Assembly (NCBI GenBank): GCA_020249775.1
Contig: JADCFA010000023.1
Location: 124,001-188,000 of the forward strand
Direction of reading: 5' to 3'
Length of the DNA stretch: 64,000 nucleotides
Source: Roseomonas sp.
GTDB taxonomy: Bacteria; Pseudomonadota; Alphaproteobacteria; Acetobacterales; Acetobacteraceae
The notes beneath the pieces were generated by a model. It did not search any database and had not been told where the DNA came from. It worked only from the letters and a program-made list of their open reading frames with translations. A program made the position numbers and the translations under genes. Below, one piece after another: positions 7,318 through 27,265 of this stretch (position 1 is its first letter; each line of letters begins with the position of its first letter).

Positions 7318-8502
7318 TTGGTTATCGGCGCTGGCCCCGCCGGCCTGATGGCGGCGGAAGCCGCGGCGCAATCAGGTGCGGCGGTGATGGTGGCCGATCA
7401 CATGCCATCGCCTGCGCGCAAGCTGCTGATTGCCGGGCGCGGCGGGCTTAATCTGACGCATTCGGAAGCGCTGCCGCATTTCCTGAAGCATTATGGCGCG
7501 GCGGAAGCGCAACTTGCGCCGCATATCCGCGCCTTCCCGCCTGAGGCGCTGATCGCCTGGGCTGAAGGGCTGGGTCAGCCCTGTTTCACAGGCTCCTCCG
7601 GACGCGTATTTCCGCGCGCCATGAAAGCATCGCCGCTGCTGCGTGCCTGGATGGCGCGGCTTGATGCGCTTGGCCTTCGCTTGCTTGCACGCCATCGCTG
7701 GCTTGGCTTCGCGCCCGATGGCGCCGCGCGTTTCGCGACACCGGCTGGCGAAACGCACATCAAGGCTTCTGCCACTATTCTTGCACTTGGTGGCGCTTCC
7801 TGGCCACGGCTTGGATCGGATGGCGCCTGGCCTGCGCTATTGCCCGGCATCACCACGCGCCCATTCGCGCCATCCAATATGGGCTTTTCCATTACTTTGT
7901 CGGAACATTTGCGGCAGCGTTTTGCCGGCACGCCGCTCAAGCGCATCGCGCTAACCTTCGGCAGCATCACGCAACGTGGTGAGGCAATGATCACCGAAGC
8001 CGGCATTGAGGGCGGCGCGGTATATGCGCTGAGTGCCGCCATCCGCGATGCGCTGGCAGGGCAGCGCAGCGCCACGCTGCATCTTGATCTTCGGCCTGAT
8101 CTCAGCCTGGCCGAACTTGCCGCAAGGCTTCTGGGCCGGCGCGGCAGCCTTTCGCTCTCCAACCATTTGCGGCGCAATGCGGGCCTGGCGCCGGTTGGGA
8201 TTGCCCTGGTGCAGGAAGCGTTGAAATCCGGCACCGCAACGCCTGATCTTGCCGGGCTGATCAAAGCCTTGCCGCTACAGGTGACGGGCTCTTTCCCGAT
8301 CGCGCGCGCCATATCCTCAGCCGGCGGGCTTGCCTGGTCTGAGGTGGATGAAAACCTGATGCTGCGCCGCTTGCCGGGCGTTTTCGCCTGTGGCGAAATG
8401 CTGGATTGGGAAGCGCCAACGGGCGGCTATTTGCTGCAAGCCTGTTTCAGCACAGGCCATGCGGCGGGCCTGGCGGCGGCGCGGTATGATGCAAGGGCTT
8501 GA
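7318..8502 (+). CDS. TIGR03862-type flavoprotein, BaiN/HI0933-like NAD(P)/FAD-dependent oxidoreductase
   Basis: About 394 residues. The FAD-binding VIGAGPAGLMAAEAAAQSGA lies at the extreme N-terminus, then a GRGGLNLTHSE motif and a C-terminal CGEMLDWEAPTGGYLLQACFSTG that is diagnostic for the HI0933/TIGR03862 group. The group are flavoproteins; BaiN acts in bile-acid reduction in Clostridium, but proteobacterial members have no settled function. No ATG exists near the Rossmann motif. The candidates are TTG at 7318, ATT at 7315, or CTG at 7309, which would overlap the upstream stop as CTGA. Confidence 0.85.
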   Translation: MVIGAGPAGLMAAEAAAQSGAAVMVADHMPSPARKLLIAGRGGLNLTHSEALPHFLKHYGAAEAQLAPHIRAFPPEALIAWAEGLGQPCFTGSSGRVFPRAMKASPLLRAWMARLDALGLRLLARHRWLGFAPDGAARFATPAGETHIKASATILALGGASWPRLGSDGAWPALLPGITTRPFAPSNMGFSITLSEHLRQRFAGTPLKRIALTFGSITQRGEAMITEAGIEGGAVYALSAAIRDALAGQRSATLHLDLRPDLSLAELAARLLGRRGSLSLSNHLRRNAGLAPVGIALVQEALKSGTATPDLAGLIKALPLQVTGSFPIARAISSAGGLAWSEVDENLMLRRLPGVFACGEMLDWEAPTGGYLLQACFSTGHAAGLAAARYDARA

Positions 8503-23713: not shown

Positions 23714-24963
23714 TGGCGCAGCTTTCGGATGATTGCTTCGCCTTTGGCGGCGCACTGATGGCGGTGGAGGAAGCCCAGGCGCTGATCCTGGAGCGTATCC
23801 CGCCCTCCACAGGCACTGAGATGGTGGCACTAGCCGCCGCGCGCGGGCGTGTGCTGGCCGCCCCCCTGCTGGCGCCCTTGCCCTTGCCGCCCTTCTTCAA
23901 CGTTGCCGTGGATGGCTGGGCCTTCCGCCATGCGGATTTGGCGCCGGGCACCGAGACCGCCCTGACCGAAGTGGGCCGCATCGCCGCCGGTGAGGCTCCG
24001 CCCCGCAGTGTGGCCCCGGGTGAAGCGATGCGTGTTTTCACCGGCGCCCCAATGCCGCCCGGCGCCGATACCGCGGTCATGCAGGAAGATGTGCGCCGCG
24101 ACGGCGCGGCGATTTTCGTCCCCCCCGGCCTTAAGCTCGGCGCCAATGCGCGCCCCGCCGGTGAGGATATCGCCGCCGGTGCGCTTGCGCTGCCTGAGGG
24201 CAAAAGGCTTGGCCCGGCCGAGATCGGCTTGGCGGCGGCTTTGGGTCAGGCGCGGCTTGCGGTGCGCCCGCGGCTCAAGGTTGGCGTGTTTTCGACCGGC
24301 GATGAATTGGCAAGCCCCGGTGACGCACTCGGCCCCGCGCAAAGCTATGACAGCAACCGCTTCACGCTGCTGGCACTTCTGGCCGCGCTGCCGGTGGAAG
24401 CGCATGATCTTGGCATCTTGCCCGATAACCGCGCCGCGACGGAAGCGGCGCTGCATGAGGCCGCCGCCGACCATGATCTGCTGCTGACGAGCGGCGGCGT
24501 TTCAACCGGTGAGGAAGATCATGTGCGCGCCGCGATTGAAGCCGGTGGGCGCTTGGTATTCTGGCGCCTGGCGGTGAAGCCGGGCCGTCCGGCCGCCATG
24601 GGCCTCGTGCGCGGCACGCCTGTGCTTGGCCTGCCGGGCAATCCCGTGGCGGCGGTAGTGACGTTTCTGCATCTGGCGCGGCCCTTGGTGCTGCGCCTTG
24701 CGGGGGCTTTGCCCGAAGCCCTGCCGCGTTTTGTGGCGGAGGCTGACTTCACCTATCGCAAAAAGGCCGGACGGCGCGAATATGTGCGCGTCAGCCTGCA
24801 CGCCACGGGCGGCCTGCCGCGCGCGAAAAAATTTGCGCGTGAAGGGGCGGGCTTGCTGACATCCCTCACGCAATCCGATGCCTTTGCGGAATTGCACGAG
24901 GAGATTACGGTGGTCAGCCCTGGGGATCGGGTGGCGGTGCTGCCCTTTGGGGCGGTGTTTTAA
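23713..24963 (+). CDS. moeA: Molybdopterin molybdotransferase MoeA
   Basis: A 416-residue MoeA that inserts molybdate into adenylylated molybdopterin. Recognisable landmarks are FFNVAVDGWAFRHADL near residue 57, VFTGAPMPPGADTAVMQED, VGVFSTGDELASPG, SYDSNRFTL, and LLTSGGVSTGEEDHV followed by VKPGRPAAMG and GLPGNPVAAVVTFL. All four domains fit the usual length. It is the last gene of the Mo/formate block. After its stop the base composition falls sharply, marking the edge of an insert. Confidence 0.95.
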   Translation: MAQLSDDCFAFGGALMAVEEAQALILERIPPSTGTEMVALAAARGRVLAAPLLAPLPLPPFFNVAVDGWAFRHADLAPGTETALTEVGRIAAGEAPPRSVAPGEAMRVFTGAPMPPGADTAVMQEDVRRDGAAIFVPPGLKLGANARPAGEDIAAGALALPEGKRLGPAEIGLAAALGQARLAVRPRLKVGVFSTGDELASPGDALGPAQSYDSNRFTLLALLAALPVEAHDLGILPDNRAATEAALHEAAADHDLLLTSGGVSTGEEDHVRAAIEAGGRLVFWRLAVKPGRPAAMGLVRGTPVLGLPGNPVAAVVTFLHLARPLVLRLAGALPEALPRFVAEADFTYRKKAGRREYVRVSLHATGGLPRAKKFAREGAGLLTSLTQSDAFAELHEEITVVSPGDRVAVLPFGAVF

Positions 24964-25028
24964 AGGGGGGTAAGTTCAAGTCAGTAAGGTCGGAGTTCGT
25001 GCGCGCAGGAATGCTTAACTAGCCTCGA

Positions 25029-25034
25029 TATAAT
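25029..25034 (+). promoter_or_regulatory. Candidate -10 element for the NTase/DUF262 gene pair
   Basis: A perfect TATAAT stands in the AT-rich gap 24964-25126, about 93 bases before the first gene of the insert. No good -35 hexamer is found 16-18 bases upstream (CAGGAA at 25006), so the call is weak. Nothing else codes in this gap. Confidence 0.3.
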
Positions 25035-25126
25035 GTACACGTATCAGTCGATGAAAAAATTATTGCGATCTAACATGATTACGTTAATATGCCATTGGAG
25101 TAGAACCCTTTTACACGCCTGGTGCA

Positions 25127-25720
25127 GTGTCTGTGTCTCGCGGTCCACAAGATAATTTCTACCTTAGAGTATCGGAGCATGAAGATGGCACGGAGAAAAT
25201 CCTACGCCTCTTCCTTGAGGAGCACCCTGAGTGCTTCAATGGAAATCTTAGAGACGCCACTAAAATTAGACACGAAATCTCGAGATTTTTCCTAATACCC
25301 TATCGGAGTATTATTTTCTGTGGGTCTGCTCAATTGGGTTTTAGTCCTTATAAAGAAACGTCTTTCACGATGGGCCGCTCTGATCTCGACGTAGCCTGTA
25401 TCAATGGAGACTTATTTCAGAAAGCTTGGATTGACGTTGTTGCGAAGTCCAGGGGCTTTACCGATTTGTCGGTGTTTCCGAGTAACAGTATCAATGAGAT
25501 TGATTATTTTAAAGAGAAAATTTATAAACGAGGAATGATTTATGTGTCCGAGATGCCTACAACTCCGTTGGTCCGTTCATGGAATGAATTTTCATTCGAT
25601 CTCTCTCGAAGATTTAATGAACTGTTTTCCAGAATAACTTTTGCAATTTATCTGAATGAATACGCCTTTTGCTGGAAGCAAAAGAGTGTTTTGAAGGGAG
25701 CCAAAGATCATGGAAAATAA
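25127..25720 (+). CDS. Putative nucleotidyltransferase-fold protein paired with DUF262
   Basis: A 197-residue protein of no family I can name. Residues 62-91 read IIFCGSAQLG...GRSDLDVAC: Gly66-Ser67 and Asp86-x-Asp88 form the GS and DxD hallmarks of the DNA polymerase beta-type nucleotidyltransferase fold, with about 18 residues between them, longer than in minimal MNT toxins. A third carboxylate is not clear, so it may be inactive. Codons are AT-rich, unlike everything around it. The start is a GTG with a weak ribosome-binding site. It overlaps the DUF262 gene by 11 bases, so the two products probably work together. Confidence 0.6.
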   Translation: MSVSRGPQDNFYLRVSEHEDGTEKILRLFLEEHPECFNGNLRDATKIRHEISRFFLIPYRSIIFCGSAQLGFSPYKETSFTMGRSDLDVACINGDLFQKAWIDVVAKSRGFTDLSVFPSNSINEIDYFKEKIYKRGMIYVSEMPTTPLVRSWNEFSFDLSRRFNELFSRITFAIYLNEYAFCWKQKSVLKGAKDHGK

Positions 25721-26873
25721 TCTTAGATATTCTGTGCGTTCGAGAGAAATTGTAGATTTGGTAAATGCAATGAAGCGAGATCAGCTAACGATTTCGCCAT
25801 TTTTTCAAAGAAATTTGGTTTGGCGAGATACCCATCGGCGGGAATTCATAGAGACCATCATTAAGGGTTTTCCTTTCCCTCAAATTTTTCTTGCAAGAGG
25901 TCCAATAAATCTGGAAGAGATGACTGCGGTTCAATGTGTTGTCGATGGTCAGCAACGACTGAACGCAATTAGAGACTTCGTTTCTGATCGACTGGAGGTT
26001 CAAGGGAAATTGTTTTCACACCTTTCCGTGAAGGCAAAGGAAGATTTTTTAAAATACGAAGTTGCTGTTATCGATTTTGATTTAGAGACAACAGATGAAC
26101 GGCTGAAGGAGATATTTCATCGTCTAAATAGAACTTACTACTCGTTATCCCTTATTGAGCGAATTGCTTCAGAATACAGTTCATCTGACTTTCTTTTGGT
26201 GGCCCGTGTTTTGTGCGGCGATTTTACTTCTAAGCCGCCTAGCGACGATTTTGGCGACGAAGCGGAAGATCAGCTTAGTTTGTCGGGGCTCGGTGGCGGC
26301 TATTTTAGCCAAGATCCGGGAATTGGTGACGATTTTAAAGAGTGGATGAGTGTCAATCAAAATAATGCTCTTGCCAAAATCATTAGGGATGGAAGTGTCT
26401 TCTCATCGCATGAATTCTCGAGAAAAGTACCATTGATGTTTGTTTTAAATTTAATGTGTACCGTTCTTTATGGTTATTTTGATCGAAATAGTATGGTTAG
26501 AAATTCTCTAGATAAATTCGCAGAGAATTTTCGCCAGCGCGACCAAATTTTTTTGGCCATAAATAACGCTGCGAAGTTCATTGAAAAGATGCGTTTACCA
26601 AAAAAATGCATTTGGTGGAACAAAGCTAATTTCTTCTCGTTGGTGTCAGAGCTCTCGCGAATGCCTTCTCTTGAGGCACTTGACGAAACGCAGGTGAAGT
26701 CACGACTTCTGAATTTCGAAAAACATATCCCAGCGGAATATGCACGCGCCGCCCGAGAGGCGGTGGGCAGGAAGCCGGAGAGGGAAATGCGGAGCGCTTA
26801 CGTTGCCAGACTTGTTAGAGGGGACGATTGCATTAACGAGGCGACGGAGGCTCAAACCTCCACCACCACATAA
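25710..26873 (+). CDS. DUF262 (GmrS/SspE N-domain, ParB-like) protein
   Basis: A 387-residue protein. FFQRNLVWRD at 31-40, FIETIIKGFPFPQIFLA and VVDGQQRLNAIRDF (DGQQR at 79-83) are the defining DUF262 motifs, and IFHRLNRTYYSLSLIE matches the conserved RLN region. In GmrSD and SspE this fold binds and hydrolyses nucleotide and senses modified DNA, while a DUF1524 HNH domain cuts. No HNH motif is present here, so the effector would be the partner or absent. AT-rich codons mark it as acquired. A GGGAG site precedes the ATG. Its last 22 bases run into the 3' end of the Rieske gene on the other strand. Confidence 0.85.
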   Translation: MENNLRYSVRSREIVDLVNAMKRDQLTISPFFQRNLVWRDTHRREFIETIIKGFPFPQIFLARGPINLEEMTAVQCVVDGQQRLNAIRDFVSDRLEVQGKLFSHLSVKAKEDFLKYEVAVIDFDLETTDERLKEIFHRLNRTYYSLSLIERIASEYSSSDFLLVARVLCGDFTSKPPSDDFGDEAEDQLSLSGLGGGYFSQDPGIGDDFKEWMSVNQNNALAKIIRDGSVFSSHEFSRKVPLMFVLNLMCTVLYGYFDRNSMVRNSLDKFAENFRQRDQIFLAINNAAKFIEKMRLPKKCIWWNKANFFSLVSELSRMPSLEALDETQVKSRLLNFEKHIPAEYARAAREAVGRKPEREMRSAYVARLVRGDDCINEATEAQTSTTT

Positions 26874-27265
26874 TCCGCCTCAACCTTCACCGGAAAAGTC
26901 TCCGCCTGATACGGCCCCTCAATCAAAGCTTGGCCCGCTTCGACATGCGCGGGAAAGGCGCGCACCTTGGTCCGCCTCGGATCGAACCAGCTTTTACCGG
27001 TGCGGATATCGAATTCCCAATTATGCCAAGGGCAGCGCAGCATTTCCCCCGCGCGGGAGAAATGATAGCGCCCCGGTTCATCGCTCAGCGTCAGGCCGCA
27101 CAGAATACCGCCGGAAAGCGCGCTGCCCTGATGCGGGCAACGATCCAGCAGCGCGAAGAACTCGCCGCCCAGATTGAACACGACAATCTTCTTGCCATCC
27201 GCTTCCACCAGCTTCCGGCCACCAGGCGGGATTTCATCCACCGCCGCAACAATATGCCGCACCAT
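26852..27265 (-). CDS. Rieske 2Fe-2S protein
   Basis: A 137-residue single-domain Rieske ferredoxin-like protein. The ligands are Cys43/His45 in RCPHQGS and Cys78/His81 in RCPWHNWEF. The size fits either a ferredoxin for a ring-hydroxylating oxygenase or an N-terminal half of one, but no oxygenase catalytic domain lies nearby. Its start overlaps the stop of the upstream amidohydrolase (TAATG), so electrons or a cofactor may be delivered to the same pathway. The gene's 3' end is the right-hand limit of the AT-rich insert. Confidence 0.88.
   Translation of the reverse strand: MVRHIVAAVDEIPPGGRKLVEADGKKIVVFNLGGEFFALLDRCPHQGSALSGGILCGLTLSDEPGRYHFSRAGEMLRCPWHNWEFDIRTGKSWFDPRRTKVRAFPAHVEAGQALIEGPYQAETFPVKVEADYVVVEV

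What the first reader, a model, noticed from the sequence alone, without database searches (positions are those of the whole stretch)
25127..26873. AT-rich two-gene insert: nucleotidyltransferase-fold protein plus DUF262 protein, candidate defence module
Seen: two genes overlapping by 11 bases, with much lower GC than both flanks, inserted between moeA and a Rieske gene. The first has GS at 66-67 and DxD at 86-88, the nucleotidyltransferase hallmark; the second has DUF262 motifs (FQRNLVW, DGQQR) but no DUF1524 HNH. Known: DUF262 occurs in GmrSD and SspE, which restrict modified DNA. Inference: this pair is a compact, nuclease-less variant in which a nucleotidyl transfer, for example to RNA, tRNA or a protein, replaces cleavage. 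I do not know it as a described system.
Basis: partly seen in the sequence, partly recalled or inferred. Interest (0 to 1): 0.78.

Follow-up and report, generated by a model that had tools for sequence, protein, structure and literature searches.

The report
Nucleotidyltransferase-like plus DUF262 phage-defence candidate
Two small overlapping genes that travel together between bacteria, in several cases inside prophages or plasmids, look like an undescribed anti-phage module in which an NTP-binding sensor-type protein is paired with a nucleotide-transferring enzyme instead of a DNA-cutting one.

Summary
In detail: two genes overlapping by 11 bases, 42% GC in a 62% GC window. The first (A) has GS(66-67) and DxD(86-88); the second (B) is DUF262 with QR, DGQQR and FxxxN motifs and no DUF1524. 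The pairing is not chance. Of 19 distinct A homologues found, 18 lie directly upstream of a DUF262 gene (Alpha- and Gammaproteobacteria, a Desulfovibrionales MAG, phages, plasmids); the other precedes a DUF4365 gene. A and B distances agree (17 pairs, Mantel r 0.95). Of 30 best DUF262 loci fetched from 299 genomes, A stands only beside the three already known; in 19 of the other 27 an AAA ATPase, HEPN, FRG or PLD gene is the neighbour. Two pairs sit in the P2 gpA-portal region, a published defence hotspot. NTase assignment rests on profile comparison (E 5.7e-5, as between two true NTase sets; controls 0.022 or worse) and invariant GS/SDxD; Foldseek gave no support. The likely third carboxylate is Asp in 13 of 19, Ser in the window. 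The window copy has metabolic neighbours. Best reading: a mobile defence module with DUF262 as sensor/switch and A as modifying partner; the target, the trigger and the direction of control are unknown. New variant of a known kind.

The parts
25127..25720 (+). gene A: nucleotidyltransferase-like protein, 197 aa (matches phrog_32008, unknown function)
25710..26873 (+). gene B: DUF262 (GmrSD_N) protein, 387 aa, no DUF1524 HNH domain found
25710..25720 (+). 11-base overlap of the two genes (translational coupling is an inference)
25322..25327 (+). GS motif of A (residues 66-67), invariant in 19 of 19 homologues
25382..25390 (+). DxD motif of A (residues 86-88); both D invariant in 19 of 19
25547..25552 (+). 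place of the likely third carboxylate of A: Asp in 13 of 19 homologues, Ser141 here, followed by Glu142
   Evidence: that this is the third carboxylate is inferred
25803..25823 (+). QR motif of B (FQRNLVW)
25944..25958 (+). DGQQR motif of B (NTP pocket in other DUF262 proteins)
   Evidence: motif role from passages of PMC10952713 and PMC12137116
26115..26129 (+). FxxxN motif of B (FHRLN)
24962..26849 (.). AT-rich segment (42% GC) outside the homology to the siblings' moeA and Rieske regions; approximate borders
26852..27265 (-). Rieske-type host gene (name recalled) whose 3' end overlaps the end of B

Best explanation
A compact, horizontally moving two-gene defence module. B, a DUF262 NTPase with an alpha-helical second half and no recognised nuclease domain, is the sensor and NTP-driven switch, probably for phage or modified DNA as in other DUF262 proteins. 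A, a small polymerase-beta-type nucleotidyltransferase, is its dedicated enzymatic partner, probably made by coupled translation and held in a complex. On sensing infection B releases or activates A, which transfers a nucleotide to a host or phage target (tRNA, another RNA or a protein) and stops the infection. Shown: conserved pairing, co-divergence, intact NTPase motifs in B, invariant GS/SDxD in A, phage or plasmid location of several copies. Inferred: the defence function, the complex, the enzymatic activity, the direction of control and the target.
For: 18 of 19 distinct A homologues lie directly upstream of a DUF262 gene on the same strand; gaps are -14 to +12 bases in the 16 pairs measured, with start codons chosen by me or by the record. 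Pairwise distances of A and B agree over 17 of the 18 pairs (Mantel r 0.947, 0 of 5000 permutations; the 18th, L146, was found later). On a 43-row DUF262 tree the 17 A-linked rows need 2 changes, 0 of 500 shuffles as low, and a single clade is not rejected, p-AU 0.338. All 18 A-linked B proteins keep QR, DGQQR and FxxxN. A matches minimal NTases at the GS/DxD core with E 5.7e-5, as strong as minimal NTases against GlnD-type NTases (5.3e-5); reversed and unrelated profiles give 0.022 to 0.93. Other DUF262 genes stand beside other partner genes: an AAA-type ATPase in 12 of 27 loci (by motif), HEPN in 4, FRG in 2, PLD in 1, unassigned in 8. Context: in E. coli strain 1500 and in IMG/VR contig L028 the pair lies between the replication gene gpA and the portal gene, the P2 region described as a hotspot of anti-phage systems that holds old and tin (PMC9122126, passages); other copies lie beside a phage integrase (L024), 1.6 kb after a phage endolysin gene (L010), 0.5 kb before a KAP NTPase matching PADLOC PDC-S20 (L027), directly after a NOV_C gene matching PDC-S36 (L007), and on plasmids.
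Against: No experiment and no phage-challenge data. Foldseek found no match with E<=0.001 for the A model; NTases appear only in the noise (CdnD E 4.7, pol lambda E 5.9). The window's A lacks the third Asp, and 6 of 19 homologues lack it at that column, the window included. A against GlnD-type NTases was not significant (1.9%, E 0.025). Pfam NTP_transf_2 reaches its cut-off in none of the 18 A proteins scanned, and unrelated families score at similar levels in some (for example DUF1599 0.012, APOBEC_C 0.041). The window copy has metabolic neighbours by eye; three of them gave no PADLOC match. L002, L005 and L017 also have ordinary neighbours (by eye or annotation). IMG/VR and plasmid collections return mobile DNA by construction, so those contexts are biased. 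Gene order (NTase first) also suits a toxin-antitoxin pair. In L016 A stands beside a DUF4365 gene, so DUF262 is not its only partner.
Confidence: 0.45

Rival explanations
1. Toxin-antitoxin-like control: A is an MntA-type antitoxin that nucleotidylates B and keeps it inactive; infection or loss of A frees B, which harms the cell or the phage. The pair may still act in defence.
For: Minimal NTases with a GSX10DXD motif polyadenylylate their HEPN partner through that motif (PMC7641770, passages); A has a GS...DxD core, comes first in a closely spaced or overlapping gene pair and co-diverges with B. In L016 A sits beside a DUF4365 gene whose best PADLOC profile is a REase-type one, E 1.1e-10, as an inhibitor of a nuclease might. 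Chemistry with two carboxylates would tolerate the missing third Asp (inference).
Against: B has no recognised toxic or nuclease domain; in GmrSD, BrxU and SspE, DUF262 is the NTP-hydrolysing regulatory part (PMC10952713, passages).
Confidence: 0.3
2. A is a catalytically dead NTase-fold subunit (nucleotide or nucleic-acid binding) that serves as a specificity or assembly part for B, whose own NTPase cycle blocks phage DNA.
For: The likely third carboxylate is missing in the window copy and five others; Foldseek sees no NTase.
Against: GS and both D of SDxD are invariant in 19 of 19 across deep divergence (mean A identity 28% over 17 proteins), as expected if they are used.
Confidence: 0.15
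3. CBASS-like signalling: A makes a nucleotide signal that is bound by the NTP pocket of B.
For: GSxxxG[FT]S...SDxD resembles the CD-NTase signature (recalled). Two A homologues touch PADLOC's oligonucleotide-cyclase profile weakly (L016 E 0.0054, L008 E 0.022). NTase next to its effector is the simple CBASS layout (recalled).
Against: A is about 180-220 aa, without room for the C-terminal lobe of CD-NTases (recalled). The cyclase scores are no better than chance-level ones in the same scans (JetB 0.0065 for L032, AriA 0.011 for L005). The third acid is not universal.
Confidence: 0.1

Closest known systems
GmrSD / BrxU / SspE (DUF262 + DUF1524 type IV restriction)
   Same: DUF262 with QR, DGQQR and FxxxN motifs; BrxU and SspE head the structural matches of B (E 1e-3 and weaker, low TM-scores)
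   Different: no DUF1524/HNH domain found; a separate NTase-like gene instead
Menshen (that NsnA is its DUF262 part is recalled)
   Same: B matches PADLOC NsnA at 2.4e-21 (window) and nearly full length in L028 (3.9e-38)
   Different: Menshen pairs DUF262 with a predicted OLD nuclease (PMC10952713, passages); here the partner is NTase-like and no ATPase gene is adjacent
PD-T4-2 (DUF262 and HEPN)
   Same: DUF262 system without DUF1524 (PMC10952713, passages); B matches PD-T4-2_A at 3.1e-15
   Different: partner is NTase-like; no HEPN match
HEPN-MNT (HepT/MntA) toxin-antitoxin
   Same: two-gene module with a small GS...DxD nucleotidyltransferase
   Different: partner is DUF262, not HEPN; GS-to-D spacing 18 in the window protein instead of 10; Pfam NTP_transf_2 cut-off not reached
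GrwAB / TgvAB two-gene GmrSD-like systems
   Same: two-gene operons built on DUF262
   Different: both proteins carry DUF262 and one carries DUF1524 (PMC12137116 and PMC12409362, passages)

Membership tests
GmrSD-type type IV restriction | DUF262 domain with QR, DGQQR and FxxxN motifs | tested here: met
   Pfam GmrSD_N E 1.5e-19; motifs in 18 of 18 A-linked B proteins
GmrSD-type type IV restriction | DUF1524 HNH nuclease domain | tested here: not met
   no DUF1524 match in A or B at E<=10
GmrSD-type type IV restriction | cleavage of modified DNA | not testable with these tools
   needs an assay
Menshen | NsnA-like DUF262 protein | tested here: met
   PADLOC NsnA 2.4e-21
Menshen | adjacent OLD/ATPase-type partner | tested here: not met
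   the genes beside B are A and a Rieske-type gene; among 27 other DUF262 loci an AAA-type ATPase is adjacent in 12
PD-T4-2 | HEPN partner gene | tested here: not met
   no HEPN match at E<=10 in the window's A or in 11 A proteins
polymerase-beta nucleotidyltransferases | GS and DxD core | tested here: met
   invariant in 19 of 19; hhalign to 11 minimal NTases E 5.7e-5, controls 0.022-0.93
polymerase-beta nucleotidyltransferases | Pfam NTP_transf_2 above its cut-off | tested here: not met
   window protein none at E<=10; best homologue L026 20.1 bits against 21
polymerase-beta nucleotidyltransferases | third catalytic carboxylate | tested here: not met
   Ser141 in the window protein; Asp in 13 of 19 homologues. 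The identity of this column as third carboxylate is inferred
polymerase-beta nucleotidyltransferases | NTase fold | tested here: inconclusive
   AF2 pLDDT 78.8, helix-strand order compatible by my reading; no Foldseek match with E<=0.001 in PDB or BFVD
HEPN-MNT toxin-antitoxin | HEPN toxin partner | tested here: not met
   the window's partner is DUF262, as in 18 of 19 homologues
CBASS | CD-NTase (SMODS) domain | tested here: not met
   no Pfam match in the window protein at E<=10; only weak PADLOC Cyclase scores for two homologues
anti-phage defence system | protects against phage | not testable with these tools
   context evidence only

The most novel reading that the evidence does not exclude
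A nuclease-less DUF262 system in which recognition of foreign (possibly modified) DNA switches on a minimal nucleotidyltransferase, so that infection is stopped by nucleotide transfer to RNA or protein instead of by DNA cutting: one branch of a general DUF262 design in which a common sensor is coupled to exchangeable partners (HNH, OLD/AAA, HEPN, FRG, PLD, NTase).
Probability: 0.35. Interest if true: 0.8.

Novelty: new variant of a known kind. Interest (0 to 1): 0.6.

Why it matters
DUF262 recurs in many defence systems, and those without a nuclease have no established output. A conserved, compact pair in which the partner is an NTase-like enzyme is a tractable two-gene test of what a nuclease-less DUF262 protein does. 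It would also give a role to a protein family (phrog_32008, function unknown) that no Pfam model reached at cut-off in the 18 members scanned. Two copies lie in a known P2 hotspot, so phage assays are direct.

Tried and rejected
Rejected: chance co-occurrence (18 of 19). L009 as a homologue (E 1.3e-4): no DUF262 neighbour, SapC-like by eye (recalled), dropped before the count. Repeated fetches of one record were counted once (window: L001, L006, L012, L029, L037, L085; L002: L011, L018, L034; L003: L035; L004: L033; L005: L036; L007: L013, L020, L031, L086; L008: L021, L030, L087; L014: L019; L146: L145). L037, the window's own copy, had slipped into the first tree as 'other' and was removed, with the fragment L095, before the tree reported here.

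Led nowhere: PDB sequence searches for A (no NTase); Foldseek for A in PDB and BFVD; tblastn with A proteins in the phage collection (no match) and with two A proteins in plasmids (no match); one viral scan (none); SMODS search for a comparison set (2 weak hits in 58 genomes). Terminal repeats at the segment ends: nothing beyond 7-base matches. dN/dS: synonymous sites saturated in most pairs; B of L004/L010 gives 0.053, and A of that pair differs at 0.74 of synonymous but 0.09 of nonsynonymous sites.

Literature: eight searches of the open PMC library listed no paper on this pair by title or abstract; passages of 13 papers were read by term search and none describes it. No paper was read whole, and supplements and subscription papers were not available, so an earlier description there, for example in a supplementary table of hotspot contents, is not excluded.

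Full report
Observation. The two genes are as described: A at 25127-25720 (197 aa, GTG start) and B at 25710-26873 (387 aa), overlapping by 11 bases. Their GC is 0.41 and 0.43, against 0.62 for the rest of the window. A has no Pfam, NCBIfam or PADLOC match at E<=10. It matches one PHROG of unknown function, phrog_32008, at E 5.8e-4; the five relatives of A scanned match the same PHROG at 1.1e-9 to 4.2e-13. B is GmrSD_N/DUF262 (E 1.5e-19) with no DUF1524; its best PADLOC profiles are NsnA (2.4e-21) and PD-T4-2_A (3.1e-15).

The place in the genome. Relatives of the same genus carry Rieske-type and moeA genes at up to 96% and 94% protein identity, but I found them nowhere side by side. moeA has no match in ten sibling stretches that reach 1.1 to 6.6 kb beyond the Rieske 3' end. 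The two genes are on different contigs in G748, G749, G751 and G753, and 1.4 Mb apart in the one-contig genome G756. Homology of moeA stops at its end (24947-24961, six relatives), and that of the Rieske side begins at 26847-26857 in nine of ten stretches. So the pair lies at a synteny break of about 1.9 kb, and the last codons of B run into the host Rieske gene. In G753 a transposase-like gene follows moeA (by eye). In the genus 2 of 35 genomes have A: this one and G765, whose distant copy is also paired with DUF262. The visible neighbours of the window copy are metabolic by eye, and three of them gave no PADLOC match.

Co-occurrence. Homologues of A came from genome contigs (4), whole genomes (G020, G144, G712, G765), plasmids (3), IMG/VR (6) and E. 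coli by DNA similarity to a plasmid copy (the E. coli pair is in 1 of 5426 genomes). With the window that is 19 distinct homologues, after removing duplicates and one false match (L009). In 18 of 19 the next gene, on the same strand, is DUF262, with spacings of -14 to +12 bases in the 16 measured (start codons as annotated or chosen by alignment). The exception, on an Aliarcobacter plasmid (L016), is followed by a gene annotated DUF4365, with genes nearby that match PADLOC bSEFIR (1.4e-83) and DrmC (1.1e-9). The family is rare: 3 of 398 genomes in the phylum sample and 4 of 385 in the class sample, each count including the window's own genome. The samples share genomes.

The reverse test. A profile of B finds DUF262 relatives in 70 of 299 genomes; 30 loci, among the best-scoring matches and one per genome, were fetched. 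A stands only beside the three B copies already known to be paired. In the other 27 (one a fragment, L095) I assigned a neighbour in 19: an AAA-type ATPase in 12 by motif (three of the 12 scanned with Pfam, two strongly AAA and one, L105, only at E 0.005); HEPN in 4 (L091, L096, L106, L112), FRG in 2 (L098, L113) and PLD in 1 (L089), each by Pfam. The remaining 8 have no assigned partner. The flanks read were about 1.5 kb, so a more distant A would be missed. HEPN and ATPase genes lie downstream of DUF262, whereas A, FRG and PLD lie upstream, so the partner places are not identical. On a 43-row tree the 17 A-linked DUF262 proteins fall in two groups (13 and 4 rows); one clade is not rejected (p-AU 0.338), the label needs 2 changes, and none of 500 shuffles is as low. 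Distances of A and B agree over 17 pairs (Mantel r 0.947, 0 of 5000 permutations). Shared host ancestry can add to this, but the hosts are scattered over several classes, phages and plasmids. L146, found later, is in neither test.

Is A a nucleotidyltransferase? GS, the Ser before DxD and both D are invariant in 19 of 19, with a mean pairwise A identity of 28% over 17 proteins. A profile of 18 A proteins aligns to 11 minimal NTases at GS and SD.D, probability 66%, E 5.7e-5 for this single comparison. The same tool gives 67%, E 5.3e-5 for the minimal NTases against 15 GlnD-type NTases. The controls for A give E 0.022 (reversed NTases), 0.93 (Rieske), 0.87 (moeA), 0.79 (amidohydrolase) and 0.25 (DUF262), and reversed A against the two NTase sets 0.059 and 0.68; A against the GlnD-type set is 0.025, not significant. 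Pfam NTP_transf_2 appears weakly in 4 of the 18 A proteins scanned (L026 8.2e-4, 20.1 bits against a cut-off of 21; L016 0.013; L032 0.091; L008 0.094), while unrelated families reach 0.012 to 0.23 in some. Against this, the AlphaFold model (pLDDT 78.8, pTM 0.75, 11 sequences) has a compatible order of helices and strands by my reading, but no Foldseek match at E<=0.001 in PDB or BFVD; CdnD and pol lambda stand among the noise at E 4.7 and 5.9. The column that I take for the third carboxylate (residue 141, just after the third predicted strand) is Asp in 13 of 19. The window has Ser141-Glu142, and L016, L017, L026, L027 and L028 differ too, L016 with an Asp two before and L017 with one directly after. 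The passages on MntA, which polyadenylylates its partner, describe the GSX10DXD motif as its active motif (PMC7641770), so loss of a third acid need not mean loss of activity. I rate the NTase assignment at about 0.75 and activity of the window copy at about 0.5 (inference).

B. All 18 A-linked B proteins keep the QR, DGQQR and FxxxN motifs, described for other DUF262 proteins as conserved and tied to NTP binding or hydrolysis (passages of PMC10952713, PMC12137116 and PMC8565348). The model (pLDDT 76.9, pTM 0.56) has BrxU, SspE, ParB, Noc and KorB as its first ten PDB matches, from E 1e-3 on and with low TM-scores. Its second half is alpha-helical. No nuclease is recognised.

Defence context. 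Passages of PMC9122126 describe the P2 region between gpA and gpQ as a hotspot of anti-phage systems that holds old and tin. The pair of E. coli strain 1500 lies between the replication endonuclease and the portal gene, and that of L028 between a Phage_GPA gene and a portal gene; in L026 a portal gene follows, and the other side was not tested. L024 is next to an integrase gene, L010 lies about 1.6 kb after a phage endolysin gene, and L027 is followed, 0.5 kb on, by a KAP NTPase matching PADLOC PDC-S20 at 3e-86. L007 directly follows a NOV_C gene matching PDC-S36 at 5.5e-96. L003 has a TIR-FHA gene and a PLD-SNF2 helicase within 3 kb. L015 is a 6.2-kb plasmid. L002, L005, L017 and the window have ordinary neighbours by eye or annotation; L008, L014, L025 and L146 were not assessed beyond a glance, and L004 shows only a sub-threshold MtlR match beside it. 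The viral and plasmid collections are mobile by construction; the E. coli copy, from a search of all complete genomes, is the least biased case.

Mechanism. Where studied, DUF262 is an NTPase part whose output depends on the attached domain or neighbour: HNH in GmrSD, BrxU and SspE, a predicted OLD nuclease in Menshen (PMC10952713, passages). In the pairs here the partner is NTase-like. I therefore favour sensing and switching by B and nucleotidyl transfer by A to a host or phage target (0.45); an NTase toxin that inactivates tRNA acceptor stems is known (title seen in a reference list). The main rival is that A acts on B, as MntA acts on HepT (0.3). A dead NTase fold (0.15) and a nucleotide signal (0.1) remain. 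Nothing here shows the target, the trigger or the direction of control.

Novelty. None of the eight literature searches listed a paper on the pair, and the passages read in 13 papers do not describe it. The 2015 GmrSD phylogenomics paper and a 2025 paper that grouped DUF262 proteins of 24,757 genomes have no occurrence of 'nucleotidyltransferase' in their main texts (PMC4619093, PMC12373910). PADLOC had no convincing match for the 10 A proteins scanned, best E 0.0054. The parts belong to known superfamilies and the plan (DUF262 plus partner gene) is known, so I call it a new variant of a known kind.

Noticed in passing
L016 (Aliarcobacter cryaerophilus plasmid pM830MA) 5935-8594: The one A homologue not beside DUF262 is followed by a DUF4365 gene, near genes matching PADLOC bSEFIR and DrmC: possibly a second system that uses the same NTase-like protein.
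   Followed up: partly
L147 (G187 contig C6, around 2845600) 7477-8064: A DUF262 C-terminal fragment that groups with the A-linked branch lies between two transposase-like genes, with no A in the 14 kb read: a decayed copy.
   Followed up: partly
L093, L094, L097, L099-L102, L104, L105, L107-L109: DUF262 genes next to an AAA-type ATPase gene in 12 of 27 loci read, several with start-stop overlap: a common two-gene layout, reminiscent of Menshen.
   Followed up: partly
L098 and L113: DUF262 gene directly preceded by an FRG-domain gene in two genomes; another possible partner of DUF262.
   Followed up: partly
L015 (Cronobacter dublinensis plasmid pA84-3, 6.2 kb): The pair makes up about a quarter of a small plasmid with a Rop-family gene, typed non-mobilizable.
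   Followed up: no
window 26850-26873: The 3' end of the DUF262 gene runs into the antisense end of the Rieske gene, so its last codons come from host sequence.
   Followed up: yes
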